From an uncultured Eubacteriales bacterium (GTDB lineage: Bacteria > Bacillota > Clostridia > Christensenellales > Aristaeellaceae): a stretch of 64,000 bases of DNA. Under the pieces are notes generated by a model. The model ran no database searches and had not been told where the DNA came from. It saw only the letters and a program-made list of their open reading frames with translations. Made by a program: the position numbers and the translations under genes. Numbering within the stretch: position 1 is the first letter of the stretch; each line of letters opens with the position of its first letter. The stretch spans positions 33,647 to 97,646 of the forward strand of contig CADASI010000001.1 in the NCBI GenBank assembly GCA_902790525.1, given 5' to 3'. Of the stretch, positions 6,022 to 62,402 are shown one piece after another.

Positions 6022-6034
6022 TTACATGAATTTC

Positions 6035-6061: not shown

Positions 6062-6104
6062 ACCGTTAGGCTGAAAACATGGAGCGAAGAAAGGGGGTGA
6101 GAGT

Positions 6105-6422
6105 GTGAGGCCAAGTGAACGCAGACAGGCGATTTGGGAGGCCCTGCGGCTGCGGCGGCAGGATACTGCCGAGAACCTTGCGCGGGAATTTGGTGTCAGC
6201 GTCAGGACAATACTCAACGACGTTGTTGAACTCACACTCCACTACCCGATTGAGACAGTTCGCGGACGCTATGGCGGAGGAATCAAACTGCCGGATTGGT
6301 ACCAGCCGACACGAAGAAGCCTTTGTCCAGAACAAATCCGAGCCCTAAAGAGGCTGGCCTCCTTGGCAGATGGCGATGATTTGTGTGCGCTCAACAGTAT
6401 TCTCGATCAATTCGCTCCATAG
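6105..6422 (+). CDS. Winged-helix (HTH_11/DeoR-like) DNA-binding protein
   Basis: 105 residues from a GTG start with AAAGGGGGTG just upstream. The first 60 residues form a DeoR/HTH_11-type wHTH: RRQAIWEALRLRRQDTAENL then AREFGVSVRTILNDVVEL, with a wing region VRGRYGGGIKLPDWY. The remaining helical tail (CPEQIRALKRLASLADGDDL) has no effector domain. It sits between a terminator-like hairpin and the SNF2 helicase, so it may control the replication operon. Target unknown. Confidence 0.75.
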   Translation: MRPSERRQAIWEALRLRRQDTAENLAREFGVSVRTILNDVVELTLHYPIETVRGRYGGGIKLPDWYQPTRRSLCPEQIRALKRLASLADGDDLCALNSILDQFAP

Positions 6423-6444
6423 TACGACCTATTGGAGGGCAACG

Positions 6445-7872
6445 ATGGGCTACAACAATACTCATTCCTTTGAATTGGCGATCAGGGCGGCGCCCTTTGA
6501 ACATCAGCGGCAGGCGGCGGCTTTCGCTTTGAATTGCCTTCAGCGTGGTGGCGGGGCTGCGTTGCTGATGGAGATGGGCACGGGCAAGACGCTGACGTCC
6601 ATTGGCATCGTCGGCAGGCTGCGCATGGAGGGCATGATCTCCCGGCTCCTGATTGTCGCTCCGCTTTCCATCCTCGGCGTGTGGCGGGATGAATTCGACA
6701 AGTTTGCCGGATACGACTACTGCCTGACGGTGTTGGAGGGCACGGCAGCCAAGAAGGTGGATACGATCAGGCACATGACAGGCCGGAGCCTGCAGGTACT
6801 GGTGATCAATTACGAGTCTGCCTGGCGGATGGAAAAGGAACTGGCCGGATGGCGGCCCGACATGATCATCTGCGACGAGGGGCACAAGATCAAGACCCAC
6901 AACATCGCGGCGAGCAAGGCCATGCACCGGTTGGGTGCAAAAGCAAAGTATCGCCTGCTGCTGACCGGCACCATCATCACGAACAAGCCCGTCGACGTTT
7001 TTTCGCAATACAAGTTCTGCGACCCGACGGTCTTCGGGAACTCGTTCTACCAGTTCCGGAACCGCTATTTCGATATGGTGGGCTTCGGCGGGTATACGCC
7101 GGTGATGAAGCGGTCCATGGAATCAGAATTCATGGAGCGGCTGCACAGCATCGCGTTCCGGGCAACCAAGGCCGAATGCCTGGACCTGCCGGATTTTACT
7201 GACATCGTGCAGCGGGTCGATCTGGAGCCGCAGGCAATGCGGATATACCGAAATCTCGTCCGGGACAGCTACGCGGAACTGGCGGAGGGCACGGTTACGG
7301 TGACCAACGTCCTGACACAGCTGTTGCGGCTGTCGCAGCTGACGGGTGGATTCATTGGAGGGGATGGCGATGAGGGCACGACACAGGTATCGGAGGCGAA
7401 GATGGAGGCGCTGGGTGACCTGGTGGATAGCGCGGTGGCAGATGGCCGGAAAATCGTCGTGATTGCCCGGTTCGTGCCGGAGATACACGCCATCGGGAAA
7501 ATGCTCGAAAAGAAGGGCATACGGTTCGCGCAGGTCTCCGGAGAAATCAAGGACAGGAGTGACCAGATCGTGTTGTTCCAGAAAGATTCGGAGGTACCGG
7601 TGTTCATCGGGCAGATCTCGACAGCGGGCCTGGGGATCACGCTGACGGCGGCAACGCTCATGGTGTTCTATTCGCTGGATTACTCCATGAGCAATTATGA
7701 GCAGACCCGCGCCCGCATCCATCGCGCGGGCCAGAAGAACGAATGCACCTACATCCATCTGGTCGCCCGGGGGACGGTGGATGAAAAGGTGATGAAGGCG
7801 CTTCGGGACAAGGCGAATCTGGCGAAGGCGCTGGTGGATGATTACCGGGCCGGGATGAATCCCTTCAACTGA
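6445..7872 (+). CDS. SNF2/DEAD-like phage helicase
   Basis: 475 residues from the ATG after GGAGG. Superfamily 2 translocase: FEHQRQAAAF (Q-like motif), Walker A MGTGKT (residues 44-49), Walker B ICDEGHKIK (about 142-150), motif III LLTGTII, and motif VI QTRARIHRAGQ (about 418-428). The C-terminal helicase domain starts at about residue 320. These phage SNF2 proteins usually sit with a family-A polymerase and a primase-helicase, as here, and probably act in replication or recombination. The next gene starts 17 bp downstream. Confidence 0.93.
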   Translation: MGYNNTHSFELAIRAAPFEHQRQAAAFALNCLQRGGGAALLMEMGTGKTLTSIGIVGRLRMEGMISRLLIVAPLSILGVWRDEFDKFAGYDYCLTVLEGTAAKKVDTIRHMTGRSLQVLVINYESAWRMEKELAGWRPDMIICDEGHKIKTHNIAASKAMHRLGAKAKYRLLLTGTIITNKPVDVFSQYKFCDPTVFGNSFYQFRNRYFDMVGFGGYTPVMKRSMESEFMERLHSIAFRATKAECLDLPDFTDIVQRVDLEPQAMRIYRNLVRDSYAELAEGTVTVTNVLTQLLRLSQLTGGFIGGDGDEGTTQVSEAKMEALGDLVDSAVADGRKIVVIARFVPEIHAIGKMLEKKGIRFAQVSGEIKDRSDQIVLFQKDSEVPVFIGQISTAGLGITLTAATLMVFYSLDYSMSNYEQTRARIHRAGQKNECTYIHLVARGTVDEKVMKALRDKANLAKALVDDYRAGMNPFN

Positions 7873-7889
7873 AACTCAGGAGGTATGAA

Positions 7890-8303
7890 ATGGACGGATC
7901 AATGTTGGAATGGGCAGACAGGCTGAAGGCCCTGCGTGATCGCAAGGTGGAATTGGAGGCGGAGATCAAGGATATCAATGCCCAGATCGACAACGCCGAC
8001 TGGCATCTGTCGAATCTGATGGCGGACTCCGAGACGCAGAATTTCACGCACGCGGGGACGATGTTCTGCCTTACGACGAAGACGCGGGCCAGCGCGAAGG
8101 CAGGCCGGAAGGACGAATTGTTCCAGGCGCTGCGCGGGGCGGGATTCGGAGACATGATCGTGGAGACGGTCAACGCGAATAACCTGTCGGCGTTCGTGCG
8201 GGAGCAGATGGAGGAAAACGCGGACGCGCTTCCGGACTGGCTGGACGGCCTTGTGAGCGTGTTCGAGAAAACGACGGTGGGCGTGCGGAAGGCCGCCCGA
8301 TGA
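7890..8303 (+). CDS. Conserved phage early protein, coiled-coil N-terminus
   Basis: 137 residues. The N-terminal 50 residues are strongly helical and charged (RLKALRDRKVELEAEIKDIN), a likely coiled coil. The C-terminal part, GDMIVETVNANNLSAFVREQ then LPDWLDGLVSVFEKTTVGVR, matches a family I know only as a conserved protein of Bacillota phage replication modules (IVETVNA.TLS signature). AGGAGG lies before the ATG. It is placed between the SNF2 helicase and a cysteine-motif protein, which points to a replication or recombination accessory role, not proven. Confidence 0.7.
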   Translation: MDGSMLEWADRLKALRDRKVELEAEIKDINAQIDNADWHLSNLMADSETQNFTHAGTMFCLTTKTRASAKAGRKDELFQALRGAGFGDMIVETVNANNLSAFVREQMEENADALPDWLDGLVSVFEKTTVGVRKAAR

Positions 8304-8318
8304 GAAAGGAGATTCATC

Positions 8319-9062
8319 ATGAACAAGAATACGGAAATCGCGGTTGTCAACAACTACACGGCACTCAAGGATTTCAATCTGGCGGAGGCCATGGCGTCGG
8401 AGCTGAGCGGCATGAATATCTCGTTCGATCGCGTGTCGGTACCCGCCGCCGGTGGGCTGGCGTTCGAGCTGCCCGGCGAATTACCCGGGGAGACGGACAT
8501 GGCGAAGGAATTCACGGGCGTGATCCTGTTCCACCACCCCCTGTTCACGTACTACCGGGACAGCTTCACGGGCGGGAACAACCCTCCGGATTGCGGCTCC
8601 TACGACGGCGTGTACGGCGTCGGCGATCCGGGCGGACGGTGCGACAAGTGCCCGCTGAATCAGTTCGGCAGCGATCCCAACGGCGGGAAGGCCTGCAAGA
8701 ACAAGCGCCGGGTATACATCCTGCGCGAGGGCGAATTGATCCCGATCCTGTTGACGCTGCCGGTCGGATCGATGAAAGAGTTCGCGGTGTACATCAAGCG
8801 GCTGCTGACGAAGGGCAAGAAATCCTCCGCCGTGGTGACACGCTTCTCCCTCAAGAAGGCGACGAACGCAGGCGGCATCGCGTACAGCCAGGCGCAGTTC
8901 GCGGTGGATCGGGTACTGTCGCCGGAGGAGATCCCGTACATCAACGCGCTGGCGGATCAGGTGAAGGCGCTGGCGTCCGGTGTGGCCTATGATACCGAAC
9001 AGCTTTCCGGTGAGGAGATCAATCCGTTTACCGGGGAAGTCGTCAACGCAGAGCAGATGTAA
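8319..9062 (+). CDS. Conserved phage protein with cysteine cluster
   Basis: 247 residues, unknown function. The central block (about residues 90-127) runs PPDCGSYDGVYGVGDPGGRC, then DKCPLNQFGSDPNGGKACKN: four cysteines in a CxnCxxCxnC pattern that could bind zinc or an Fe-S cluster. It is followed by a beta-rich region (RRVYILREGELIPILLTLPV) and a helical C-terminus. AAGGAG precedes the ATG. I recognise it as a conserved neighbour of phage family-A polymerases. An ssDNA-binding or recombination-mediator role is possible, but there is no direct motif for it. Confidence 0.7.
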   Translation: MNKNTEIAVVNNYTALKDFNLAEAMASELSGMNISFDRVSVPAAGGLAFELPGELPGETDMAKEFTGVILFHHPLFTYYRDSFTGGNNPPDCGSYDGVYGVGDPGGRCDKCPLNQFGSDPNGGKACKNKRRVYILREGELIPILLTLPVGSMKEFAVYIKRLLTKGKKSSAVVTRFSLKKATNAGGIAYSQAQFAVDRVLSPEEIPYINALADQVKALASGVAYDTEQLSGEEINPFTGEVVNAEQM

Positions 9063-9115
9063 GACGCGATCATGCCGGAGGGCGGCTCGCCCGTCCTCCG
9101 GCCCATGGAGGGCTT

Positions 9116-11041
9116 ATGAGTAATTATCGTTGTGAGATCGATCCGGAGCGGATCAAAGATTATGTTCAAAATGCCGCTGTGGTCGCGTTCGACTTTGAGA
9201 CATCGCCGCTGATCCAGTACCGGGACGACCCACGCGCGTCGTTGGACGCCCATCGTTCCGTGATCGTCGGGGTGAGCCTGTCGGTGGCGGAGGGCAGTGC
9301 GATCTATGTGCCGCTGGAGCATTTCGAGGGCGGCAACGCCGACCCGGGTGTCGTCATCCCCATGCTGACGGAAATCCTCTGGAAAAATCCGGGCGTGATC
9401 AAGGTGGCGCATAATCTGGCGTTTGAATCCATGTTCCTGTATGCCTTGGGCATCATCGTGCAGCCTCCCTGCTATGACACCATCGCGGCGGCACAGCTTA
9501 CCCTGAAGGAGCCGTTCGTATTCCGCAGCCTTTCCGATTGCGGCCTGAAGCGCCTGGTGCCGGAATTGCTCGGGGATGAATTGCCTACGTTCGAGGATGT
9601 GACGGAGGGCCGGTTCTTCGATGAATTGTCGCCTGATGATCCGGAAACGGTTCGGTATGCCTGCGCTGACTCGGATTGTGCGCTGCGGCTGTACCACCTG
9701 TTCAATCGGTGGTTCATGGCACAGATACCGGAGCACAGGTACATCGTTGAGGAGATCGAATCCCCCACAGCTGTGTACTGTGGCCTGATGAAATACAACG
9801 GGCTGCTGGTGGACGAGGCGGCGATGATCCGGAAGCAGGGCGAATGCGGTGCGCGGCTGATCGGGCTGCGGGATCGGATCAGGGAGATCATCGGGGATGT
9901 GGACATAGGGGCAAACGCCGGGACGCAGGCGTTCAAGGATTACCTGTTCCGGGATATGGGGCTGCCTGTTTTGAAGGTGACGGAGAAAAACGCGGAGGCC
10001 GCTGACGATCAGACCATGGTCATGCTGGCGGAATGGTGTGCGGAAAACAGGCCGGAGCTGGTAGGGCTGTTCGATCTGATCCAGGAATATCGGAAGTGGT
10101 CGAAGCTGAAGACCACATACCTGGACGGATACTTGCGGTTCATCAATCCGGCGACGGGGCGGATTCATCCCGATCTCCTGCCGCTGGCTACGGAAACCGG
10201 GCGGTTCGCGGCCAGAAACCCCAACATGCAGAACGCGCCGAGGAAGACGAACGATCCCATCGGCATCCGCTCCTTCATCGTCGCGCCCGAGGGTCATGTG
10301 CTGGTGTCCTGTGATTTTTCGCAGATCGAGCTGCGGATCGGAGCGTTCTACTGCAGGGATAAAAAGATGCTGGAGACCTACCGGAAAGGCGGCGATATCC
10401 ACGCGGCGACGACCTCGGTCATTTTCGGGATTCCGTATGAGCAGGCTGTGGACAAGAACGCGCCGGATTACAAGGAGCGCCGGACGATTGCGAAAAACGT
10501 CAATTTTGGCGTGTTCTACGGTTTGTTCGCCCGGGGCCTCCAAAGGACGCTGAAATTCAAGGCCGGGCTGGATAAATCGCTGGACGATTGCGAGGGGATC
10601 ATTACAAATCTCAAGGCCGGTTATCCGAATCTGACGCGCTGGCAGGCGAAGGCGAGGGACGCCGGGATGAAGCGCCAATATACGCAGACATTCCTGGGGC
10701 GGCGGCGCTATCTGCCGGGCATCCGCTCGCAGGATTGGGGCAGGCGGTCGTTCGCGGAGCGCTGCGCGCTGAACACTCCGATCCAGGGGACGGCGGCGGA
10801 CATTTTGAAGCTGTCCCTCGGCAGGCTGATCCGGGGCCTCCCGGAAAGGCCGTGGCTGCGCCCGCTGTTGCAAATCCATGACGAGCTGGTTTTTGAATTG
10901 CCGGAGGAACGGCTTCATGAGGCGGTGGCGTTCATCCAGGAATGCATGGACGCAAAGCCCTTCCCGGAATTGGACGTGCCGCTGGTGGCCGAGGCCTCTT
11001 GGGGGTATGACTTTGGACATATGAATGAAATGGAGGGTTGA
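9116..11041 (+). CDS. Phage DNA polymerase, family A with 3'-5' exonuclease
   Basis: 641 residues. N-terminal DnaQ-like proofreading domain: FDFETS (about residue 25), HNLAFES, and YACADSDCALRLYHLF (Exo III-like). Polymerase domain: motif A DFSQIELRIGAFY (about 399), motif B RRTIAKNVNFGVFYG (about 460-474), motif C QIHDELVFE (about 586). No 5'-3' exonuclease domain, as usual for phage enzymes. The start has GGAGG upstream. It lies in the replication operon just before two small proteins and the primase-helicase, and is the likely replicative polymerase of the phage. Confidence 0.96.
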   Translation: MSNYRCEIDPERIKDYVQNAAVVAFDFETSPLIQYRDDPRASLDAHRSVIVGVSLSVAEGSAIYVPLEHFEGGNADPGVVIPMLTEILWKNPGVIKVAHNLAFESMFLYALGIIVQPPCYDTIAAAQLTLKEPFVFRSLSDCGLKRLVPELLGDELPTFEDVTEGRFFDELSPDDPETVRYACADSDCALRLYHLFNRWFMAQIPEHRYIVEEIESPTAVYCGLMKYNGLLVDEAAMIRKQGECGARLIGLRDRIREIIGDVDIGANAGTQAFKDYLFRDMGLPVLKVTEKNAEAADDQTMVMLAEWCAENRPELVGLFDLIQEYRKWSKLKTTYLDGYLRFINPATGRIHPDLLPLATETGRFAARNPNMQNAPRKTNDPIGIRSFIVAPEGHVLVSCDFSQIELRIGAFYCRDKKMLETYRKGGDIHAATTSVIFGIPYEQAVDKNAPDYKERRTIAKNVNFGVFYGLFARGLQRTLKFKAGLDKSLDDCEGIITNLKAGYPNLTRWQAKARDAGMKRQYTQTFLGRRRYLPGIRSQDWGRRSFAERCALNTPIQGTAADILKLSLGRLIRGLPERPWLRPLLQIHDELVFELPEERLHEAVAFIQECMDAKPFPELDVPLVAEASWGYDFGHMNEMEG

Positions 11042-51321: not shown

Positions 51322-52594
51322 ACCCTCGAAGGCCCGGACGCTGAAGCGCGAGCGCGTGGCTGCTTATGCCCGCGTTTCCCTGGATAAGGATACGATGCTG
51401 CACTCGCTTTCAGCGCAGGTGAGTTATTACAGCGAGTATATCCAACGGAATCCCCTGTGGATTTATGCCGGTGTTTACGCCGATAGCGCCTGCACTGGTA
51501 CCCGCGCGGATCGCCCGGAATTGCAGCGTCTGCTGGCGGATTGCCGGGCAGGAAAGGTCGACAGGGTGATCACAAAATCCGTCAGCCGATTTGCCCGCAA
51601 TACCATTACGCTGCTGGAAATCACCCGGGAACTGAAAGCTCTCGGCATTGATGTATTCTTCGAGAAGGAAAACCTGCATTCGACCAGTGGAGAAGGCGAG
51701 TTGATTCTTACCCTTCTGGCTTCCTTTGCACAGGAGGAAAGCCGGTCCGTATCTGAGAACTGCAAGTGGCGCATCCGGAATATGTTCAAGGCAGGCATTC
51801 CGACATCAGTAAGAATCAATGGATATCATATGGATCACGGGAAGATCACCATTATTCCGGATGAGGCAGAAACGGTCCGGTTTATCTTTGCGCTCCGTCG
51901 TCTCGGATATGGCCGCACTGCCATCTGCAAGGAATTGAATGAGCGCGGCATTCCGGCCAAGAATGGCGGGGAATGGACCGTGACATGCATTGGCACGCTT
52001 CTGCAGAACGAGAAATATGTTGGCGATCTCCTGCTGCAAAAGTATTTCCGTGTGGATCATTTGGAAAAGCGGGACAAGCGCAACAAGGGCGAATACCCCA
52101 AATACCTGATAAAGAATAATCACGAAGCCATCATACCCCGCGAAACCTTTGAAGCAGTGCAGGCAGACATCCGGAGACGTGCTGCGGCCCTGCCCGAGGG
52201 CCATGGGCACCATGCCTTCTATCCCTTTACTAGCAAGCTGGTATGCGCACGCTGCGGGAAGCATTACCGGCGGCGGTATAACAATGGGATTGCCGCCTGG
52301 CAGTGCAATACGTTTATGACCTTCGGCAAGGACAAGTGCCCGGCCAGGCAAATCCGGGAGGCGATTCTTGAAGACGCCTGTGCGCGGGCGATGAGTATGT
52401 CTACTTTTGATCCCGCCATGTTTGAGAATCAGATCGACCATATCACGGTTTGTGATAATCGAAAGCTGATATTTTCCTTCCACGATGGAAAAACACAGGA
52501 AGAATGGTGGCAGGAACCTTCGCGCAGGGATTCGTGGACGCCGGATATGCGAGCAGAAGCGGCAGAAAAGAAAAGGAGGAAGTCTCATGAGTGA
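51296..52594 (+). CDS. Serine recombinase 1
   Basis: 432 residues. Resolvase/invertase catalytic domain with Ser28 in AAYARVSLDKDT and Arg-rich motif KSVSRFARNTI; recombinase domain GYHMDHGKITIIPDEAETVR, zinc ribbon CARCGKHYRRRYNNG...C. No long coiled-coil tail. It overlaps recombinase 2 by eight bases; such tandem pairs are frequent at Clostridia prophage and ICE ends and are thought to integrate together. Part of the probable integration module of the prophage. Confidence 0.93.
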   Translation: MERTIRKIEPSKARTLKRERVAAYARVSLDKDTMLHSLSAQVSYYSEYIQRNPLWIYAGVYADSACTGTRADRPELQRLLADCRAGKVDRVITKSVSRFARNTITLLEITRELKALGIDVFFEKENLHSTSGEGELILTLLASFAQEESRSVSENCKWRIRNMFKAGIPTSVRINGYHMDHGKITIIPDEAETVRFIFALRRLGYGRTAICKELNERGIPAKNGGEWTVTCIGTLLQNEKYVGDLLLQKYFRVDHLEKRDKRNKGEYPKYLIKNNHEAIIPRETFEAVQADIRRRAAALPEGHGHHAFYPFTSKLVCARCGKHYRRRYNNGIAAWQCNTFMTFGKDKCPARQIREAILEDACARAMSMSTFDPAMFENQIDHITVCDNRKLIFSFHDGKTQEEWWQEPSRRDSWTPDMRAEAAEKKRRKSHE

Positions 52595-54161
52595 AGCGGC
52601 GGTATCCAAGGTCATTACAACGATCCCGGCAACGCTTAACCGATTCACGGCGACGCCGATCAGGGCAGCAATCAAGCGGCGCGTGGCGGCATATGCGCGG
52701 GTTTCTACAGATGATGAAGAGCAGCAGAGCAGTTACGAGAATCAGGTTTCGCACTATACCCAATACATCAAGGAACATGAAGGTTGGTTATTCGCTGGAA
52801 TGTATACCGATGAGGGCATATCCGGAACGGAAACAAAGCATCGTGACGGGTTCAACGCCATGATCCGTGCGGCGATGGCAGGGGATATCGATCTGATCAT
52901 AACGAAATCTGTCAGCCGCTTCGCCAGAAATACCGTGGATACTCTGACTACTGTTCGCAAGCTGAAAGCCATCGGGGTTGAGGTGTATTTTGAAAAGGAG
53001 CAGATTTACACGCTGGATTCCAAAGGCGAGTTGGTCATAACGATTATGAGCAGCCTTGCCCAGGAGGAAAGCCGATCCATTTCCGAGAACGTCACCTGGG
53101 GAATGAGAAAGCGCTTTGCCGACGGCAAGGTATCGCTGCCCTATAAGCGTTTTCTTGGATACCGCAAAGGGTCGGATGGACGGCCGGAGATCGTGCCGGA
53201 AGAGGCAGAGACTGTTCGGCTGATCTACCGCATGTTCATGGAAGGAAAGGCACCCTCTTACATCGCAAGGTATCTCTCTGTAAGGGATATTCCATCCCCA
53301 GGGGGGAAAGAAATCTGGCGGCCCGAGACGGTAAAAAGCATACTGACGAACGAGAAGTACAAGGGCGACGCGCTGTTGCAAAAGACCTTCCGCACAGACT
53401 TTTTGACCAAGAAGAGTAAGATCAACGAGGGGGAAGTCGCTCAGTATTATATCAGCAACAGTCACCCCGCGATCATTGACCCGTCCATGTACGACGCAGT
53501 GCAGATCGAAATGGATAAGCGCGCTCATCAGGGCCGCCGCAATTATACGCCACATGCCTTTTCAGGGAAAATCTACTGCTCGGAATGCGGTGGACTGTAT
53601 GGCAGTGATGTCTGTCATAATCAGGTCGTCTGGAGATGCAACAACCGCCATCGGAAAACGACACAGTGCCGAACTCCCGCAATCCGCAACAGCATTATGG
53701 AAGATGCTTTTGTGATGGCAATCAATCGGGCCATCGAACAGAAGGATGCCATCATCTCCATTTGCGAGACGGTTATGACAGAGCGCTGCGATACGACAGA
53801 AATCGATACCGAGCTTGCCTCGCTGCGCGCCAAGCTGGATGCGATTACTGCCCTGATGAAAGACAGCATCTCCAATAATGCCCGCACGGCCATTGACCAG
53901 GACGAGTATAAGCACCTGTTTTCTGAGTACGAAACCCAGAGCACCTCAATTCAGACGAGCATTTCCTCATTGGAGGCAAGGAAAACGGCGCTCACAGCAA
54001 AGCGTAATAACATCCAGAATTACATCGCCATTCTTCGCTCCCAGGATAGAATTGCAGGCTTCAGCGAAACCCTATGGCTGAACTGCGTCGAGAGGGTTTG
54101 GATCAACCCCGATGGGACAATGAAATTCGACTTCAAAGGTGGCCCTTCAATAGAAGGCTGA
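52587..54161 (+). CDS. Serine recombinase 2 (large serine integrase type)
   Basis: 524 residues from the ATG after AAAGGAGG. Catalytic Ser40 in AAYARVSTDDEEQ, YTDEGISGTETKHRDGF, KSVSRFARNTV; recombinase domain GYRKGSDGRPEIVPEEAETV; zinc ribbon CSECGGLYGSDVC...C; C-terminal coiled coil (IDTELASLRAKLDAITALMK). Complete large serine integrase, the best candidate for the prophage integrase. Confidence 0.94.
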   Translation: MSEAAVSKVITTIPATLNRFTATPIRAAIKRRVAAYARVSTDDEEQQSSYENQVSHYTQYIKEHEGWLFAGMYTDEGISGTETKHRDGFNAMIRAAMAGDIDLIITKSVSRFARNTVDTLTTVRKLKAIGVEVYFEKEQIYTLDSKGELVITIMSSLAQEESRSISENVTWGMRKRFADGKVSLPYKRFLGYRKGSDGRPEIVPEEAETVRLIYRMFMEGKAPSYIARYLSVRDIPSPGGKEIWRPETVKSILTNEKYKGDALLQKTFRTDFLTKKSKINEGEVAQYYISNSHPAIIDPSMYDAVQIEMDKRAHQGRRNYTPHAFSGKIYCSECGGLYGSDVCHNQVVWRCNNRHRKTTQCRTPAIRNSIMEDAFVMAINRAIEQKDAIISICETVMTERCDTTEIDTELASLRAKLDAITALMKDSISNNARTAIDQDEYKHLFSEYETQSTSIQTSISSLEARKTALTAKRNNIQNYIAILRSQDRIAGFSETLWLNCVERVWINPDGTMKFDFKGGPSIEG

Positions 54162-54209: not shown

Positions 54210-54375
54210 TTCCCCCAAAATGTAGGGGAAAACCGTATTCCTCCGGATTTCAGCTTCTTTCCCCCAAAATATGGGGGAAGACCTCATCGTCCCGGATTCC
54301 ATTTTCTTCCCCCAAAATGTGGGGGAAAAGCTCAAGATCCCCAGGGTTTATGTTTCCCCTACTTTTTGGGGGGAA
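54210..54375. repeat. Four palindromic iterons
   Basis: TTCCCCC-N7-GGGGGAA-type units at 54210-54230 (right arm one G shorter), 54259-54279, 54307-54327, and 54354-54375 (arms 4 and 6, other orientation). Starts are 49, 48 and 47 bp apart. The spacers share a CCGGATT motif, so the unit is a tandem repeat of about 48 bp. They lie between the convergent ends of recombinase 2 and the ParB-like operon. No T tract follows, so terminator function is unlikely. Confidence 0.85.
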
Positions 54376-54380
54376 ACTTT

Positions 54381-55259
54381 TTAATCGGCCTCGTCCAATT
54401 CTTCTGCGTCGTCCTCATCGGGCGTTTCCGGTTCTTCCTCAATGTATTCGTCGAGGTTTTTGCTGTACAGCCTTTGCAGCGACAAGCGATATTTACAACG
54501 TCTGTTGTACTGGATAACCATGGCCTCCGAGAAACCCAGGGCTCCGGGCCGTCGTTCCTTTGCCGTTCGAGTGAGCTGCTTGACCGAGAGCTGCCCAATG
54601 CGTTCCTTGAAGACATCCTCACGGAGGGCATCGCCATAGGCATAGACCATGCGGGCGATCCCCTTCAGAATATTGGCCGAAAATGAAAATCTCTCTCCTT
54701 CCCATGTGCCAAGGCACAGGCGAAGCGTTTCATCCAGGACATGATAGCCATATTTGTCATAGATATACTCAAGCGCGCCGACGGCCAGGATGTTCCCGTT
54801 TTGACGGATATTGCTGATCTCCAGATGATACGAGTGAACGAGATCCTGGATCATCAGGTATTTGTTCTCTTTTGCTTCGATGTGTGCCGTGAATGTCTCC
54901 ATGGGTGTGAGCGGTTTGACGAATTTCTGTTGATCGGCAAATACGCTGGCTTCATGAACATACGACAGGTCTTCATAGATCATGCACCAGACCGGCGTAT
55001 CCCTGGAGCCGGAAGCGGCGACGACAATCTCTATGGTATGCTGGCCATTGAAGACATAGTTGATTCCATTTCTGCGGCTGACCTTGACGGGATTGATCTG
55101 ATACAGGTCGAAGTTCTCCACCGCGCGACGAATGTGGGCAATGGAAAGGGCGCGCTGATAGTCCTGGTTGGATACCAGTTCCTTGATCGGGATCAGTTCA
55201 AAATGCACCTTGGGCACGAACATATTCTGCTGAAACCCCGTGGTCGTCGGCAAATCCAT
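54381..55259 (-). CDS. ParB-like protein 2
   Basis: 292 residues. N-terminal ParB/Srx-like fold: FELIPIKELVSNQDYQRALS, VENFDLYQINPVKVSRRNGI, YVFNGQHTIEIVVAASGSRD, PVWCMIYEDLSYVHEASVFA. The helical middle resembles DUF6551-type proteins as I recall them. The C-terminal tail is very acidic (EEEPETPDEDDAEELDEAD). Last gene of the operon, starting right at the end of ParB-like protein 1, and followed by the palindromic iterons, which could be its binding sites. Confidence 0.75.
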   Translation of the reverse strand: MDLPTTTGFQQNMFVPKVHFELIPIKELVSNQDYQRALSIAHIRRAVENFDLYQINPVKVSRRNGINYVFNGQHTIEIVVAASGSRDTPVWCMIYEDLSYVHEASVFADQQKFVKPLTPMETFTAHIEAKENKYLMIQDLVHSYHLEISNIRQNGNILAVGALEYIYDKYGYHVLDETLRLCLGTWEGERFSFSANILKGIARMVYAYGDALREDVFKERIGQLSVKQLTRTAKERRPGALGFSEAMVIQYNRRCKYRLSLQRLYSKNLDEYIEEEPETPDEDDAEELDEAD

Positions 55260-56276
55260 TCAAGTCACTCCTTTGATGGCGCTCATCAGATCTTCGATGG
55301 CTTTCTGCAAATCGGAAAGCGCAAGGATCAGCTTATCACGGGCCTGCGGGGTGATATTATGCAGATCGGACTGATTGAGCACCCTGTGGATCGATGTTCC
55401 CCAGGTGGGAATGGTAAGGGTCAACCCTGTGACCTCCGCATCGGGATTGTATTCGGGCATCTTCTTGATTCCCGTGCGTATCGGCATTTGAGGCTGCCGT
55501 GCTTTTGCCGTCTGCGCATTGGGACGTACTGGCGGTGGTTGCATACCTGTCAGCCGTTTCCGTGTATCCAGATACCTCAGATAGGGCTCATCGGGGGATG
55601 ACTGCAATTGCCGGGCGTAACGGTGCATGTTTTGACTGTCCAGCTTTGAAAGCGCGATAATATTCTCATGAGAAACCTTGAAGGAGCCATTCAGGATCTG
55701 GGGTGCGAGTTCAGGCGAGACCTCGGCAATGCTGTCAACCGCACGGCTGAATCTGCCATATTTTTCAACGGTTCCATGCGAAATATGGTATTCCTCGCCA
55801 ATGCTCTCGGCCGTCGGGTTTTTCATTACTGACCTGAATCGGGAGGAATGGCTTCCGGCCTCGTAGAGTTCCTGAGCCGATGGATCGGACCCATCCGGCT
55901 TTTTGACGGGTTCCCATATGGGACGCTTTTCCCTGCGAAGGATTCTCTTTTCGATCTCGTACCGCTTACCGATGAGGTACTTGCGCATTTCCTCGGAAAG
56001 ATTCCGGCGTCCGAGCTGATTGGCGCATATCCAGGACATTGCCTCGTCCCGACTGGATACATTCAGCTCCGTTGTGCGATATGGAAGATCCCATCGTTTG
56101 CATATCCGGTAGCGGTTATGGCCATCCAGGATAATCCCTTTCCAGATGGTAATCGGCTCCCGGCAGCCATCGCGAAGTATGTTTTCTTCCAGCAATCGAT
56201 ACTCTTCACTCGTCAGCGGACGGATCAGGGAAGAGAACTCGTCATCGACGATTAATTCGTACAGCTTGTCAGACAT
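55260..56276 (-). CDS. ParB-like protein 1
   Basis: 338 residues. N-terminal ParB domain: EEYRLLEENILRDGCREPIT, IWKGIILDGHNRYRICKRWD, RDEAMSWICANQLGRRNLSE. Then an HTH-like region (NPTAESIGEEYHISHGTVEK, YGRFSRAVDSIAEVSPELAP) and a long proline-rich linker before a C-terminal helix. Plasmid-type ParB proteins have the same N-domain/HTH order. No ParA ATPase is present in the window, so ordinary partition is doubtful. Overlaps the upstream gene by eight bases. Confidence 0.82.
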   Translation of the reverse strand: MSDKLYELIVDDEFSSLIRPLTSEEYRLLEENILRDGCREPITIWKGIILDGHNRYRICKRWDLPYRTTELNVSSRDEAMSWICANQLGRRNLSEEMRKYLIGKRYEIEKRILRREKRPIWEPVKKPDGSDPSAQELYEAGSHSSRFRSVMKNPTAESIGEEYHISHGTVEKYGRFSRAVDSIAEVSPELAPQILNGSFKVSHENIIALSKLDSQNMHRYARQLQSSPDEPYLRYLDTRKRLTGMQPPPVRPNAQTAKARQPQMPIRTGIKKMPEYNPDAEVTGLTLTIPTWGTSIHRVLNQSDLHNITPQARDKLILALSDLQKAIEDLMSAIKGVT

Positions 56277-56664
56277 ATATCTCTCCCATATTCGGCTCGA
56301 TCAGGGTCATGGAGCCTATGTCAAAGAATGCGGCTCTTTCGCTGGCGACGAGAATGCCGGCCAGGTTGTAGGAGTTCCCACGCTTGACCTCATGGAATAC
56401 CGAGCAAAGCTGCGCGATGAGGTCGGTACTGTACCAGTCCACGCAGTCTTCGGTATTTGCCATCTGCCGGTCCACGCGGATTTCATGCTGCCCGGGGATA
56501 TGGCGATCCACCCCGCGAAGGGCGATTCTGCGATGCTCGGGATTGATCATCAGCTGTACGAACTTCGGGTCGCCCATCTGGTGGATGGTGGACTTGAAGA
56601 TGCGCAGGCGCGGCTTCTTTGCATCAATCGTGATGGTTACCTGCGGGGTATTGTTTTCTGTCAT
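56269..56664 (-). CDS. Stand-alone recombinase C-domain homologue, small
   Basis: 131 residues. RIFKSTIHQMGDPKFVQLMI, NPEHRRIALRGVDRH and KRGNSYNLAGILVASERAAF line up with the C-terminal domain of the large recombinase (RVELLVHPTERRFAVRRADK, NYKYKVFGNLF) and with the 264-residue protein (KYAQILVNREKKMLAIRP, NYRYKILGKLV). It is the shortest version of this shared domain. Function unknown; encoded in the same overlapping operon, so it may multimerise with the recombinase or act as a directionality factor (inference). Confidence 0.7.
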   Translation of the reverse strand: MTENNTPQVTITIDAKKPRLRIFKSTIHQMGDPKFVQLMINPEHRRIALRGVDRHIPGQHEIRVDRQMANTEDCVDWYSTDLIAQLCSVFHEVKRGNSYNLAGILVASERAAFFDIGSMTLIEPNMGEIYV

Positions 56665-57455
56665 GTAGGATCACCTCCCTGCTGATCCTCGGGTGGAATT
56701 GGTGGCGTCTCGCCGGAGGACTTATCCGGCTCGTTCAGCGATGCGGTCGAATCGTCCTTGATGGAATAGACGGCAAAGCCCTGGAACATGTTGATCTGCA
56801 GTGCCTTCTGATGATCTTCAAAGGGGATACCGAACTGATTCTGCCATTCCGCAGGGAAAATCGGATTCCGGCTGGTCTTTGGTTTCTCGCCCTCAGCGGC
56901 GGGTTCGCGAATGAATGTCTGCGCCGATCTCAGGTTGAATATGAATAGATACTCATTGTTGGCGTGGACCAGCTTCCCAAGGATCTTGTATCGGTAGTTC
57001 AAGTTCCATTTCATGAGCGTACAGATTTTCATGAAGAGCATTTTTGCCGTAATCTGGCGTGGCTGTCGCTTTTTATCCTTGGCGCGGTAGGAACACCACT
57101 GGAACGAGAATATGTCCGACTCCTGGCAGGGACGAATCGCCAGCATCTTCTTTTCGCGGTTGACCAGAATCTGTGCGTATTTGACGTTCGGGAGCTTTTT
57201 GAGGCAAGCGGAGTTGACGCCCACCTTTCCCTGATTGAAGGTAATGGCCGGCTCATGCAACTGTGAAAAGAATTCACTTCGCACGATCTGGAATCCCCCA
57301 AAGATGGAGCTGGGCACCTCTTCGATCTCTTCATCGGAGACGACATCGATCTCCTCAGCTGCCGGCGGCATCCCTTCTCCAACGGACCTGCTATTGTCCT
57401 GATCCGGGGATTCGTTCATGGCGTTATCCATATCACGCAGATTGTCGTCATTCAT
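56661..57455 (-). CDS. Stand-alone recombinase C-domain homologue, large
   Basis: 264 residues: acidic, disordered N-terminus (NESPDQDNSRSVGEGMPPAA), the shared domain (FFSQLHEPAITFNQGKVGVN, KYAQILVNREKKMLAIRP, FSFQWCSYRAKDKKRQPRQI, WNLNYRYKILGKLVHANNEY, LFIFNLRSAQTFI) and a Pro/Glu-rich tail. The recombinase equivalent is HTPSVTFYDRTIKFSAECTN, RVELLVHPTERRFAVR, WNPNYKYKVFGNLF, VYIFNAVDACMYI. Clearly homologous by eye. The start overlaps the recombinase stop by eight bases. Confidence 0.75.
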   Translation of the reverse strand: MNDDNLRDMDNAMNESPDQDNSRSVGEGMPPAAEEIDVVSDEEIEEVPSSIFGGFQIVRSEFFSQLHEPAITFNQGKVGVNSACLKKLPNVKYAQILVNREKKMLAIRPCQESDIFSFQWCSYRAKDKKRQPRQITAKMLFMKICTLMKWNLNYRYKILGKLVHANNEYLFIFNLRSAQTFIREPAAEGEKPKTSRNPIFPAEWQNQFGIPFEDHQKALQINMFQGFAVYSIKDDSTASLNEPDKSSGETPPIPPEDQQGGDPT

Positions 57456-59325
57456 TATTCTCTACCTCCCGAAGCGCCCATTCGCCAAGTTCCTGCTGAA
57501 TAAACGATTGAAGCTCATCAAAACCTGTCACGTTGAGATGAACGCCGCAATTGAACAGCTGACCCTCAATCCGAAGCTGCCACTGCTCCCTGGTCTGTGA
57601 ACGGAGTTCCGCCAGTGATTTTTCCAGATAATAGTCCTTGCCAAAGGAATGAATGCGATTGGCGGGTACAGCGCCGACGTGCTTGCCGGAGACGTTCAGC
57701 GGTGTGCTGGATGCTCCCGTTTCACCGGTTTCGGAGGAGACGATTCCTGATTTGATGTACATGCAGGCGTCCACGGCATTGAAGATGTATACCTCCTCTT
57801 CCCCGTTCTTGAACAGATTTCCGAAGACCTTGTACTTATAGTTCGGGTTCCAGCCGAACAGTGAATACAGGGTATCATAGTAAGCCGAACAGCCGAAGCT
57901 TCTGGGCTGGTTGCGTTTTCCATCGTAGGCCTGACTCCATATAACAGCGTTGCGGTTCCCCTTGTCGGCCCGGCGTACAGCGAATCTCCGCTCGGTGGGA
58001 TGTACAAGCAGTTCGACCCGACCGTCTGTCTTCATGCGATTCGTACACTCCGCACTGAATTTGATGGTGCGATCATAGAAGGTCACCGAAGGGGTATGTA
58101 TTGAATCCAGAAAGTCCAGGCGCGCAATCTCATAGCCTGATAAATCAAAATCTCCCGGCTTCACGGTGACGCTCAGTTCTTCCTTGCCGGCAGCTGTCTC
58201 TTCACCTTCGTAAGCACTGGCCGAGGCACTGAGATATTCGTTCTCCTTGAACGCACCCCAGCGCGGATTGATGATGACGAAGCCCTTCAGCAGTCCATCC
58301 CTGATGACCCTCAATTCCGGCAGTATGGATTCGTTTCCATATTTCGAGTTGTTCAGCATATGCTGGACAGCGATATAGTCGTCGCGGGATATGATCGCGT
58401 CGTGCTCATTGTAGTACAGGCTCCGGGGACGCTCGCCCCGGTTTTTCACTGCCTTGTGCGTAATCACATCCGGGGTAAATGTCTTGCGTGTGTATACGTC
58501 ACCGCAATAGCGCTCATTCCTCAGGACCTGGAGCACGGTGCCTGCCGACCATTTCGCGTTTCCGCGATAGGTGATCTTTCCTACCTCGGTCAGAGCGTCC
58601 GCAATTTGCTGGGTCGAGTATCCGTACAAGTACATATAGAACATAAGCTTCGGAATATGGGCCGTTTCCGGATTGATGACGAGCTTGCCATTCTCGTCAT
58701 GTTCAAACCCGAGCAGCTTTGGGGTGAGCGGGAGCCCATGATCCAGTCGCATGCGCAGCGACGTTTCCATGCTCCTGTGCTTGTTTCTCGATTCCTCCTC
58801 CGCCATCGTCGCCTGGAAGGACAGCGCCATCTGGGATTGCTCATTCAGGGAATAGATACACTCGGACTCGAAGAATACGCCGATGGCCGGCCTGTGATCC
58901 GACAGCATGCGGATCATTTCGAGGAAATCCTTCACGTTCCGCGCGAACCGGCTGACGTTCTTGGTGATAATGAGGTCGATTTTCCCGGCCTTGGCGGCCT
59001 CTATCATCCGGAGGAATTCGTCTCTGTGCTTCAGGGAGGTTCCGCTGATCCCCTCGTCGGCATAGATGTGCACAAGTTCCCACTTGGGGTGCTTGATCAC
59101 GAATTCCTCATAATACTTCTTCTGGAGTTCGTAGGATGTCGTCTGCCTGGGATCATCTGTGGAGACCCGTACATACACCGCAACGCGCTGATAGATGTCG
59201 TTGTCGTAACGATCCGTGACGATCGTTTCGGGGAAGTATTCATAATTGTTCTCATCGATCTGAACACGGATGCGCTGCCTGATCCGCTCCTTGACCTGCG
59301 CCTTCGACAACGGTTCCTTACTCAT
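57448..59325 (-). CDS. Large serine recombinase 3, atypical C-terminus
   Basis: 625 residues. Catalytic domain: VAVYVRVSTDDPRQTTSYEL with Ser55, YADEGISGTSLKHRDEFLRM, IDLIITKNVSRFARNV. Recombinase domain: LGFEHDENGKLVINPETAHI, NAKWSAGTVLQVLRNERYCG. Where related enzymes have a cysteine zinc ribbon this one reads LLKGFVIINPRWGAF, with no cysteines, and no coiled coil follows. Residues about 395-520 form the domain shared with the next two genes. The catalytic machinery looks intact, so it is probably an active recombinase with a novel DNA- or partner-binding tail. Confidence 0.9.
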   Translation of the reverse strand: MSKEPLSKAQVKERIRQRIRVQIDENNYEYFPETIVTDRYDNDIYQRVAVYVRVSTDDPRQTTSYELQKKYYEEFVIKHPKWELVHIYADEGISGTSLKHRDEFLRMIEAAKAGKIDLIITKNVSRFARNVKDFLEMIRMLSDHRPAIGVFFESECIYSLNEQSQMALSFQATMAEEESRNKHRSMETSLRMRLDHGLPLTPKLLGFEHDENGKLVINPETAHIPKLMFYMYLYGYSTQQIADALTEVGKITYRGNAKWSAGTVLQVLRNERYCGDVYTRKTFTPDVITHKAVKNRGERPRSLYYNEHDAIISRDDYIAVQHMLNNSKYGNESILPELRVIRDGLLKGFVIINPRWGAFKENEYLSASASAYEGEETAAGKEELSVTVKPGDFDLSGYEIARLDFLDSIHTPSVTFYDRTIKFSAECTNRMKTDGRVELLVHPTERRFAVRRADKGNRNAVIWSQAYDGKRNQPRSFGCSAYYDTLYSLFGWNPNYKYKVFGNLFKNGEEEVYIFNAVDACMYIKSGIVSSETGETGASSTPLNVSGKHVGAVPANRIHSFGKDYYLEKSLAELRSQTREQWQLRIEGQLFNCGVHLNVTGFDELQSFIQQELGEWALREVENNE

Positions 59326-60028
59326 TCAGCGCACCGCCTTCCGCCATGCCGGCAGCATTTGCATCCGGATAGCACTCGCACGGCAACAGTTCTTCCTCCG
59401 GTTCGTCGGGCAGGGCGCACCAGCCACGGGGAATGAAGCCCTGATCCCTCAGATCCTCCTGGTAGTACGTTGCGAGCGTGAAGATGTCCTCGGAAATGAA
59501 ATAGATGCCAACAGGGCAGGGCATTGCCGCCAACAGGCGGGAGACAAGGGTGATGTCCTCGGCCTTTCGCGTGACATTGCTGACCTTCTGGGTGATGATC
59601 AGGTCGATTCTCCCGGCAAAGCAGTCGTCCAGGAGGCGGCACCATTCCATGGCGCTCTCCATGTTGGGGGCCGATTGTCCCTCATCCACATAGAAATCCA
59701 CAAGCGTCCAATTGGGGCAGAGGCCAATGGTGTCGATGAACTGCTGCTTGTGATAATCGAGGTAGTTGGAATGCTTGGTTTGGTTGAAGAAGCGGATGTA
59801 CACCCCGATTCGGTAATGCTTGAAGGGGCTGGGGCATTCATGCGGGAAACTGGTCAGCCAGGCCTTGTGCTCGGCGATCTTTCGCCGACGCAGCTCTTCC
59901 TCCGGGCTCAGCGCAAACGGGTTTGGCATGGGCGGCTCGCCATTAGTGCGGCGCATCTCATCCCACAGGCTCATCTGCAGACCAGACGGGAAGCTGGAAC
60001 CGGTGTTGGGATTTTTGTTGTTTTCCAC
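59318..60028 (-). CDS. Catalytically dead serine-recombinase N-terminal domain protein
   Basis: 236 residues from a GTG with GGAGG seven bases upstream. Residues 72-190 follow the recombinase N-domain: YRIGVYIRFFNQTKHSNYLD, DFYVDEGQSAPNMESAMEWC, GRIDLIITQKVSNVTRKAED. The catalytic VRVS is IRFF (Phe81 replaces Ser) and SRFAR is SNVTR, so strand cleavage is impossible. It overlaps the active recombinase by eight bases. Possibly a structural or regulatory partner in the synaptic complex; this is inference. Confidence 0.82.
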   Translation of the reverse strand: MENNKNPNTGSSFPSGLQMSLWDEMRRTNGEPPMPNPFALSPEEELRRRKIAEHKAWLTSFPHECPSPFKHYRIGVYIRFFNQTKHSNYLDYHKQQFIDTIGLCPNWTLVDFYVDEGQSAPNMESAMEWCRLLDDCFAGRIDLIITQKVSNVTRKAEDITLVSRLLAAMPCPVGIYFISEDIFTLATYYQEDLRDQGFIPRGWCALPDEPEEELLPCECYPDANAAGMAEGGALNE

Positions 60029-60046
60029 GGAAGTGCCTCCATTACA

Positions 60047-60123
60047 GTTTATGCACCTACTATATATGCAATCATGGGGAAATGGAATAAACCGGCTGTC
60101 AAGCCCATGACTGCCAGTTTATC
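60047..60123. promoter_or_regulatory. GTTTAT half-site cluster, left of XRE genes
   Basis: GTTTATGCA at 60047-60055, ATGGAATAAACC at 60082-60093, CATGACTGCCAGTTTATC at 60106-60123, with a TATATAGT-like -10 on the minus strand around 60059-60066. Lies directly upstream of the six-gene operon and is repeated beyond the second XRE gene. The rest of 60029-60183 holds no gene. Confidence 0.6.
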
Positions 60124-60183
60124 AAAAGATGGAAAATGGGAAATTTAACAAAAGAAAGAGCGACGAATCGATGTCGCTCCCTG

Positions 60184-60543
60184 TCACTCTTCGGTTTTAT
60201 GCGTCCGCATGGTTTCCTTTAATTGCTTTGTGATCCGGATCAGGGCCTGGATTTCGTCCGGCGTACAATCGGCAAGAATATCCGCGTATTCCTGATAGAG
60301 CAGCTGCGATACGGCGGGAACCCGGGCCTTGATAATCGCATCCGAGGATACCTGCAGTGTTTCAATGATACGGATGAAACTCTGGAGCCGGATGTCCGCC
60401 TTTCCCAGTTCGATCTCACTGATGTGCGGGAGGCTGATGTTGGATTTCTCGGCCAGCTCCGATTGGCTCATCTTCAGGGCGAGCCGTGCCTCGCGGATGC
60501 GCGCGCCGATCTCTGCGGCACTGCTCATGCTACCGTTCTGCAC
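60184..60543 (-). CDS. XRE-family regulator 1
   Basis: 119 residues from a GTG with AAGAAGGTG upstream. HTH: GARIREARLALKMSQSELAE, KSNISLPHISEIELGKADIR. The C-terminal part LADCTPDEIQALIRITKQLK resembles the end of regulator 2 (LNDCTDEEKRFLVEAATALK), so the two are related. Transcribed toward the six-gene operon, divergent from regulator 2; probably represses or activates that operon through the GTTTAT sites. Confidence 0.9.
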   Translation of the reverse strand: MQNGSMSSAAEIGARIREARLALKMSQSELAEKSNISLPHISEIELGKADIRLQSFIRIIETLQVSSDAIIKARVPAVSQLLYQEYADILADCTPDEIQALIRITKQLKETMRTHKTEE

Positions 60544-60690
60544 AACATCACCTTCTTATCATCTTATAAGCTATACACGAAATATCAATCTTTATTTTAT
60601 GCTCTGGCACGGGAAATGAATATAAAGTAGAGACTTCAATATAGTCTATACATGATAATAGGAGTGACAAAATTTGAAGGAGGGAATCCC
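60544..60690. promoter_or_regulatory. Divergent intergenic region between the two XRE genes
   Basis: AT-rich 147 bp with TATAAG/TATAGC-like boxes leftward, TACATGATAAT-like sequence rightward, and an imperfect AGACT/AGTCT repeat around 60628-60648. It must hold both promoters; I cannot place them with certainty. Confidence 0.5.
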
Positions 60691-61032
60691 ATGTCACTCA
60701 ATTATCACGTCATCGGCCAGCGCATCCGGAACTACAGAAGGCAGAGGAATCTGTCGCAGAACAACGTTGCCGAAGGAATCAACAAATCCGCGACCTACAT
60801 CAGCTATATCGAGAGCGGCATCAAGCACCCAAGCCTTGAGACGCTTGTCGATCTGGCGAACCTCCTCGGTATCACGGCAGATATGCTTCTCGGAGAGAAT
60901 CTCAGGCATACGCGACTCGTGAATGAAGTGGAATTCCAGCAGATTCTGAATGATTGCACCGATGAGGAGAAGCGGTTTCTGGTGGAAGCCGCCACGGCCC
61001 TGAAGCGCATTCTGCGAGAGGGCAGGGGGTGA
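60691..61032 (+). CDS. XRE-family regulator 2
   Basis: 113 residues from the ATG after GAAGGAGG. HTH: GQRIRNYRRQRNLSQNNVAE, GINKSATYISYIESGIKHPS, LETLVDLANLLGITADMLLG. Short C-terminal tail related to regulator 1. Together the pair looks like a small bistable switch. Spacer 61033-61319 after it holds only repeats and a promoter. Confidence 0.92.
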   Translation: MSLNYHVIGQRIRNYRRQRNLSQNNVAEGINKSATYISYIESGIKHPSLETLVDLANLLGITADMLLGENLRHTRLVNEVEFQQILNDCTDEEKRFLVEAATALKRILREGRG

Positions 61033-61070
61033 TGTAGAATGATCATATTATAGACATAGGAGTGTGATCC

Positions 61071-61174
61071 ATGGAATAAACCAATGGTGGCGAGCATAAC
61101 CCTCGGTTTATCGACCTGAAAACGTGAGGGCAGGATATGACTATCGGTTTATGCAGGATAAACTGACAGTCATG
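61071..61174. promoter_or_regulatory. GTTTAT half-site cluster, right of XRE genes
   Basis: ATGGAATAAACC (61071-61082, exact copy of 60082-60093), GGTTTATC (61105-61112), GTTTATGCA (61147-61155) and GATAAACTGACAGTCATG (61157-61174). The last is the inverse complement of 60106-60123 with one mismatch in 18. Candidate operators or recombination sites. Confidence 0.6.
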
Positions 61175-61222
61175 CTCGTGATTATGATTTGCCTGTTTGC
61201 CCTTACGTTTTGTCCAAAACCA

Positions 61223-62330: not shown

Positions 62331-62402
62331 ATTGCATTGGCGCAATGGCAGCGCGATAGCCTCTGGAGCTGTAGGTTGCAGGTTCGAATCCTGTATGCAA
62401 AA
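62331..62402 (+). tRNA. tRNA-Gln(CUG)-like gene
   Basis: 72 bases with cloverleaf geometry: acceptor ATTGCAT/ATGCAAA (six pairs, end pair A-A mismatched), D stem GCGC/GCGC with loop AATGGCA, anticodon stem ATAGC/GCTGT with loop CTCTGGA (anticodon CTG), variable AGGTT, T stem GCAGG/CCTGT with loop TTCGAAT. No encoded CCA. It differs from normal bacterial tRNA-Gln and may be a phage-type or degenerate tRNA. Confidence 0.65.

What the first reader, a model, noticed from the sequence alone, without database searches (positions are those of the whole stretch)
54210..61200. Unclassified operon: dead and live serine recombinases, a triplicated C-domain and two ParB-like proteins
Seen: six genes with 4-8 base overlaps or direct abutment. 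The C-terminal domain of the recombinase recurs as two stand-alone proteins (shared blocks: KFVQLMINPEHRRIALR / RVELLVHPTERRFAVR / KYAQILVNREKKMLAIR, and NY.YK..G.L). Two ParB-fold proteins follow, then palindromic iterons. Known serine-recombinase elements do not, to my knowledge, combine these parts. Inference: a multi-protein recombination or DNA-segregation machine in which the shared domain builds a complex and ParB-like proteins bind the iterons.
Basis: partly seen in the sequence, partly recalled or inferred. Interest (0 to 1): 0.88.

Follow-up and report, generated by a model that had tools for sequence, protein, structure and literature searches.

The report
Conserved multi-protein serine-recombinase operon in prophages
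A gut-bacterial prophage carries a six-gene set built around a DNA-recombining enzyme, an inactive twin of it, two loose copies of its tail domain and two ParB-like proteins; the core of this set is inherited together across many phages and other mobile DNA, but its job is not yet known.

Summary
Six genes lie head to tail on the minus strand (54381-60028), overlapping by 4-8 bases or abutting. The recombinase's C-terminal domain really recurs twice (profile-profile probabilities 99.9, 98.2 and 97.0 %). The set lies in a prophage whose head genes match Ca. Heliusvirales phages. Co-occurrence is strong: of 60 kept bacterial PB2 loci with enough upstream DNA, 55 carry LSR, C2, C3 and PB1. The short recombinase is a conserved pseudo-enzyme: 48 of 48 distinct sequences lack the catalytic serine; 115 of 117 operon recombinases keep it and two have a gap there. 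It marks one clade of the recombinase tree (26 of 26 rows; 0 of 27 elsewhere). The set also occurs outside phages, in Tn554-like and other islands, some beside restriction or toxin-antitoxin genes. The iteron part is not supported: the palindromes are not conserved. I read it as an accessory multi-subunit serine-recombinase module that rides on mobile elements and is probably not its carrier's integrase. Its target is unknown; defence or element conflict is my first guess, control of integration and excision a close second. Ten literature searches listed no paper that evidently describes it.

The parts
59318..60028 (-). deadR: catalytically dead serine-recombinase domain protein (236 aa)
   Evidence: PF00239 E 6e-5; serine absent in 48/48 distinct sequences; hhalign to LSR 99.4 %
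57448..59325 (-). LSR: large serine recombinase (625 aa), catalytic and Recombinase domains plus a C-domain instead of a zinc ribbon
   Evidence: PF00239, PF07508; serine kept in 115 of 117, gap in 2
56661..57455 (-). C2: stand-alone C-domain protein (264 aa)
   Evidence: hhalign to LSR C-domain 99.9 %; core model pLDDT 89, pTM 0.80
56269..56664 (-). C3: second stand-alone C-domain protein (131 aa)
   Evidence: hhalign to C2 98.2 %, to LSR 97.0 %
55260..56276 (-). PB1: ParB-like protein (338 aa)
   Evidence: phrog_4715 E 4e-7; a homologue in a phage record is annotated 'pNOB8 ParB N-like'
54381..55259 (-). PB2: ParB-like DUF6551 protein (292 aa), last gene of the operon
   Evidence: PF20188 E 7e-29, phrog_1033
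60184..60543 (-). HTHa: helix-turn-helix regulator, same strand, upstream of deadR
   Evidence: PF01381; recurs at this place in many loci
60652..61032 (+). HTHb: divergent helix-turn-helix regulator
   Evidence: PF01381; recurs
54210..54375 (.). four palindromes (hairpins) between PB2 and the convergent recombinase; not conserved
60099..61181 (.). operator-like repeats ending in GTTTATC: 60099-60123, 61091-61112, 61157-61181, around the two HTH genes
   Evidence: inverted repeats I1, I2; function inferred
52485..54161 (+). Int558: zinc-ribbon large serine recombinase, convergent neighbour (probably part of the phage integrase pair); not part of the operon
   Evidence: PF00239, PF07508, PF13408
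51296..52594 (+). Int432: zinc-ribbon large serine recombinase (first of the pair); not part of the operon
   Evidence: PF00239, PF07508, PF13408

Best explanation
The operon encodes one accessory recombination machine carried by temperate phages and other mobile DNA. Shown: the genes are inherited together; LSR keeps its active site; deadR is a conserved inactive partner confined to one LSR clade; the LSR C-domain is also made as two separate proteins; the set is found in prophages that have two other serine recombinases, in Tn554-like elements that have their own recombinases, and in chromosomal places where none was seen in the DNA held. Inferred: LSR, C2 and C3 (and deadR where present) join through the C-domain and the catalytic domain into a mixed complex that replaces the usual zinc-ribbon/coiled-coil control of serine integrases; the ParB-fold proteins load on DNA with a nucleotide and gate it; the HTH pair keeps the operon repressed. 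Most likely it does not integrate its carrier but acts for the carrier on other DNA, as a defence or element-conflict system, because it travels as cargo and some copies sit beside restriction and toxin-antitoxin genes.
For: Co-inheritance: 55 of 60 kept bacterial loci; 63 of 66 distinct PB2 loci. The 56 of 56 viral loci include repeats and loci fetched with deadR, so that count is biased. LSR, C2, PB1 and PB2 all in the same 16 annotated phage records, each also with two further LSR-like places. DeadR/LSR residues and clade. Exchangeable partners: LSR-X-C2-C3-like-Fic order in L029, L030, L033 and, with broken X and LSR, L028; X found in 7 of 150 family genomes, the 6 strong ones all being LSR-C2 loci; AAA_25-LSR-C2-C3 in L035. 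Cargo behaviour: elements that split cpaF carry three tyrosine recombinases and DUF6262 at the other end; contexts interleave on the tree, at least 7 changes forced by starred branches. Neighbours: MmeI, HsdM, AbiEii, C5 methylases. Phage DUF6551 proteins bind CTP or ATP (PMC12704722, passages).
Against: No substrate or recombination product was seen. PADLOC finds nothing in five of the six proteins and one weak match in LSR (E 0.02). In phages the operon is a regular part of one lineage, which fits a phage core function as well as cargo. In one complete prophage its end lies about 340 bp from the attachment site. Carrier labels are somewhat clustered on the tree (26 of 500 shuffles as low). 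The neighbour test is biased: I chose the non-phage loci and knew that some carry restriction genes; model counts (200 vs 12) are not protein counts, and no single model matched more than 3 of 122 near genes. The clearest methylase example (L108) is inside a prophage.
Confidence: 0.4

Rival explanations
1. The operon is part of the carrier's own integration/excision machinery: LSR is a second integrase, or C2, C3, deadR and the ParB proteins set the direction (excision) for the Int432/Int558 pair.
For: In Anaerocolumna MB42-C2 the prophage splits comEC; its attachment site has 21-bp inverted arms (19 of 21 match) and lies about 340 bp from the PB2 end, with the Int pair on the other side. All 16 phage records with the operon also hold two more LSR-like places. 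LSR active sites are kept.
Against: The operon also sits in elements with their own tyrosine recombinases and in places with no convergent recombinase in at least 8 kb of downstream DNA held (26 of 42 loci, some of them cut or phage). In the window the PB2-Int junction is not split although the contig runs from host genes into the prophage, so the attachment site differs between carriers.
Confidence: 0.32
2. A segregation or dimer-resolution system that keeps the phage or island in the cell (serine resolvase plus ParB-like proteins).
For: Two ParB-fold proteins and a serine recombinase in one operon; repeated palindromes beside it.
Against: No ParA match among the six proteins; palindromes not conserved; many copies are inserted in chromosomes.
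Confidence: 0.13
3. The operon with its HTH genes is an autonomous transposon of about 5.5 kb moved by LSR.
For: Three Succiniclasticum copies, two of them in one genome, match each other only over the operon block of the 14 kb compared; L107/L108 share 5421-10956 at 96 % and differ on both sides.
Against: No convincing end repeats: best scores 16-19 of 21 over long search spaces, against 19 of 21 for the known attachment site in a far smaller space. Apart from L107/L108 (and L211, a copy of L107), no pair stops close to the operon on both sides with DNA left to compare; and L107 and L108 both have C5-methylase relatives upstream.
Confidence: 0.1

Closest known systems
Large serine integrases (e.g. 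SPbeta YokA with YotN; PDB 9dxd, 9dxh)
   Same: LSR shares the catalytic and Recombinase domains; a small partner protein controls the reaction in SPbeta (recalled)
   Different: No zinc-ribbon match; a new C-domain made in three copies; a dead catalytic partner; two ParB-fold proteins in the operon
SCCmec cassette recombinases CcrA/CcrB
   Same: two serine recombinases used together (recalled); LSR matches the CcrB model over residues 46-321, 91 bits against a cut-off of 900
   Different: Both Ccr enzymes are active (recalled); here one is dead in 48 of 48 sequences
ParB-CTPase-fold DUF6551 proteins of phages
   Same: PB2 belongs to DUF6551; such phage proteins bind CTP or ATP (PMC12704722, passages)
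   Different: The word 'recombinase' does not occur in that paper's main text (word search)
Ca. Heliusviridae/Heliusvirales phages
   Same: Window terminase, portal, protease and capsid genes are 62-75 % identical to those of two such phages where held; the five-gene form is present there as 'hypothetical protein'
   Different: The main text of the family's paper holds none of the words recombinase, integrase, invertase or ParB (PMC9226167, word search and passages)
Tn554-family transposons
   Same: elements in cpaF that carry the operon hold three tyrosine recombinases and a DUF6262 protein at the other end; the Tn554 likeness is recalled
   Different: tyrosine, not serine, recombinases

Membership tests
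Large serine recombinase/integrase | resolvase catalytic domain with serine, plus Recombinase domain | tested here: met
Large serine recombinase/integrase | zinc ribbon with coiled coil | tested here: not met
   PF13408 not matched by LSR, matched by Int432 and Int558; coiled coil not tested
Large serine recombinase/integrase | own attP/attB pair | tested here: inconclusive
   one attachment site near PB2, but the Int pair could use it
ParABS partition system | ParB-fold DNA-binding protein | tested here: met
   PHROG and Pfam matches; DNA binding not tested
ParABS partition system | ParA partner | tested here: not met
   none among the six proteins; genome not searched for ParA
ParABS partition system | conserved centromere-like sites beside parB | tested here: not met
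   palindromes differ or are single in relatives
Known anti-phage defence system | match to described defence proteins | tested here: not met
   PADLOC: nothing beyond one E 0.02 match
Known anti-phage defence system | protection against phage | not testable with these tools
   needs an experiment
Ca. Heliusvirales prophage | terminase, portal, protease and capsid genes of the lineage | tested here: met
   62-75 % identity; terminase compared with one phage only
Ca. Heliusvirales prophage | all nine core genes | not tested
   only the four head genes are named here
Autonomous transposon | end repeats and clean insertions | tested here: not met

The most novel reading that the evidence does not exclude
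A new class of mobile-element conflict system: a serine recombinase made selective by a dead twin and two spare copies of its own C-domain, and gated by two ParB-fold nucleotide switches (or, in a sister form, paired with a Fic protein), which rearranges or disables competing DNA on behalf of its carrier.
Probability: 0.3. Interest if true: 0.9.

Novelty: new variant of a known kind. Interest (0 to 1): 0.7.

Why it matters
Serine integrases are commonly thought of as single-protein enzymes with one small direction switch (recalled). Here the enzyme has a conserved inactive partner, two detached copies of its own domain and two ParB-fold proteins. Forms of the set occur in loci titled Clostridia, Succiniclasticum, Erysipelotrichaceae and, without C3 and deadR, one chromosome titled Deltaproteobacteria. 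It is a testable multi-subunit serine recombinase in a phage lineage reported in 90+ % of a human cohort (PMC9226167, abstract passage; the operon was not shown for all its members). It may be a new recombination tool or a new kind of element conflict, and it gives a function to hunt for in a set of 'hypothetical proteins'.

Tried and rejected
Clamp fold of the C-domain: Foldseek ranks DNA sliding clamps high among PDB hits for both models, but no hit reaches E 1e-3, their TM-scores are at most about 0.22 and rmsd is about 13-18 A; not claimed. Viral models give, at the top, uncharacterised phage proteins at probability 1.00, TM 0.44-0.50, two with E below 1e-3.

LSR as the integrase of the cpaF islands: first thought so (note), then rejected because a set of tyrosine recombinases sits at the other end.

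Iterons as a ParB centromere: rejected. A conserved loop motif in the hairpins looked possible; AAAATGTA was in 12 of 110 downstream stretches against 2.2 expected in simple shuffles. Not followed further; A/T-rich words were raised in general.

Self-mobile operon: end-repeat scan negative. One search undercounted C3 because of an overlap filter in my script; replaced, where loci with under 6.8 kb upstream were dropped. The tree is a quick tree (the careful one did not finish); of 110 distinct PB2 loci only the 53 with a long LSR and a context label were used, the labels were set by me, and 'no deadR' means no match in the DNA held. Neighbour test: 127 near genes found, 5 cut at contig or locus ends left out, 122 scanned; 110 far genes from eight stretches scanned.

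Empty sites in Succiniclasticum next to greA: in the other genomes greA has different neighbours, so no clean empty site. birA/rumA-like site in G309: only one side visible.

Literature: only listings were seen, except passages of PMC9226167, PMC12427128 and PMC12704722. Several listed papers hold both 'serine recombinase' and a ParB word (PMC8092301, PMC5154133, PMC6563490, PMC3522642) and were not opened.
Full report
What is there. The six genes exist as described. Reading on the minus strand: a short recombinase-like protein (deadR), a large serine recombinase (LSR), two small proteins (C2, C3) and two ParB-like proteins (PB1, PB2). A pair of divergent helix-turn-helix genes lies upstream. 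Downstream, convergent, lie two ordinary zinc-ribbon serine recombinases (Int432, Int558) and, before them, an endolysin gene (PF25309). Profile-profile comparison confirms that C2, C3 and the LSR C-terminus share one domain and that deadR is the LSR catalytic domain without its catalytic residues.

Where it is. The window is a prophage. Its terminase, portal, protease and capsid genes are 62-75 % identical to those of two Ca. Heliusvirales phages where held; the terminase was compared with one of them only, and the 75 % is a 69-residue cut piece of the portal. Both phages carry LSR, C2, C3, PB1 and PB2, all annotated 'hypothetical protein'. No deadR is seen in either, but one record begins 50 bases before LSR. 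To the left of the window the contig holds a BrxL gene (PF13337) in what looks by eye like a BREX-type island and then a nifS-like gene; I place the prophage start just after it. To the right the prophage runs to the contig's end.

How widely it occurs. C2 relatives occur in 20 of 150 genomes sampled from the window's family, its own included and several matches weak. PB2 at E 1e-40 occurs in 4 of 391 genomes drawn from the class, the window's own included. A profile scan of genome contigs gave 310 relatives of PB2, of which the best 80 were kept; a scan of viral contigs gave 162, of which 80 were kept. Of the 60 kept bacterial loci with at least 6.8 kb upstream, 55 carry LSR, C2, C3 and PB1, 21 carry deadR, and the five exceptions lack one to three of the four genes. 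Of 66 distinct loci 63 carry all four. Sixteen annotated phage records hold LSR, C2, PB1 and PB2.

The dead partner. In 48 of 48 distinct deadR sequences the catalytic serine is F or Y, and the first arginine of the SRFARN motif is lost in all 48; of 117 distinct operon LSRs 115 keep the serine and two have a gap there. On a quick tree of 53 LSRs all 26 members of one supported side carry deadR and none of the other 27 do. This looks like a maintained pseudo-enzyme, not a decaying gene.

Partners can be exchanged. In L029 the order is HTH (PF01381), LSR, X, C2, a further C-domain protein, C3, and a relative of the L030 Fic protein. L030 has LSR, X, C2, a second C-domain protein and the Fic protein; L033 has LSR, X, C2, a small unscored protein and the Fic protein; no HTH gene was evident by eye before LSR in either. 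L028 has the same set with X and LSR broken, and L034 ends after its C2 genes. X has no Pfam family. X was found in 7 of 150 genomes of the family; the six strong hits are all LSR-C2 loci, the seventh is weak and was not examined. L035 has an AAA_25 ATPase before LSR, C2 and C3. LSR and stand-alone C-domain proteins therefore stay together while the neighbours change.

Carriers. In one complete prophage (Anaerocolumna MB42-C2) comEC is split; the prophage runs from the operon end to the Int pair plus two cargo genes, and the two attachment-site arms are inverted repeats matching at 19 of 21 bases with a shared TTAA (the TTAA by eye). Reading the two host flanks together by eye gives an uninterrupted comEC frame (from; inference). 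In four species the operon lies in an element that splits cpaF at the same point or within a residue or two (PF00437). Both cpaF halves lie on one contig in three of them and on two contigs in the fourth. The three whole elements carry the same kind of recombinase set at the other end; in one of them I checked it: three tyrosine recombinases (PF00589) and a DUF6262 protein, a Tn554-like set from memory. Other copies sit beside AbiEii (L026), MmeI-type enzymes (L097, L101), HsdM (L113) and C5 methylases (L094; also L108, inside the comEC prophage). On the tree, carriers labelled phage and non-phage interleave: 11 changes, at least 7 forced by starred branches, shuffled mean 13.9, 26 of 500 shuffles as low.

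How it probably works. Shown: co-inheritance, an intact active site in LSR, a dead partner, three copies of one domain, two ParB-fold proteins. Inferred: the C-domain copies build a mixed complex, deadR caps or tunes it, and the ParB proteins gate it with nucleotide. DUF6551 proteins of phages have been shown to bind CTP or ATP (PMC12704722, passages). As the operon appears in carriers that already own other recombinases, I think it is not their integrase; its company suggests element conflict. This last step is a guess, held at 0.4, with integration/excision control close behind at 0.32.

The C-domain. A model of the core reaches pLDDT 89 and pTM 0.80. No solved structure matches below E 1e-3 and no PDB sequence matches the C2 profile up to E 10. 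Uncharacterised phage proteins match at probability 1.00 with TM up to 0.50. I found no described family for it.

The palindromes. Four hairpins lie between PB2 and Int558, one with a terminator-like T run. The closest relative found, L163, has one; others have different sequences, many of them hairpins. I read them as a multiplied convergent terminator, not as ParB sites.

Literature. Ten searches listed no paper that evidently describes this gene set; most listed papers were not opened, and the library lacks most subscription papers, so this is weak evidence of absence.

Noticed in passing
window contig C1, 17212-33334 (left of the window; loci L330, L331): A BrxL gene (PF13337 E 4e-104) in what looks by eye like a BREX-type defence island next to the prophage start; the 1400-aa neighbour has no Pfam match.
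   Followed up: partly
window 62331-62402: A tRNA-Gln (CTG) gene in the right arm of the prophage.
   Followed up: no
L029 13166-14017: A microbial PARG-type gene (PF10021) lies upstream of the LSR-X-C2-Fic variant; a similar-looking gene lies upstream in L034 (by eye).
   Followed up: no
Anaerocolumna piece, joined coordinates 81048-83784: Genes resembling, by eye, a magnesium transporter (mgtE) and a KefB-type antiporter lie inside the prophage between Int558 and the attachment site.
   Followed up: partly
window 60099-61181: Three operator-like repeats ending in GTTTATC flank the HTH pair, one about 70 bp upstream of deadR; AATAAACC is raised in upstream regions of distinct loci, 17 of 110 against 1.4 in simple shuffles, but is not rare in the window itself (3 against 0.96 expected).
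   Followed up: partly
L106: The operon without C3 and deadR stands alone in a complete chromosome titled Deltaproteobacteria bacterium Smac51, next to transposase-like fragments (by eye).
   Followed up: partly
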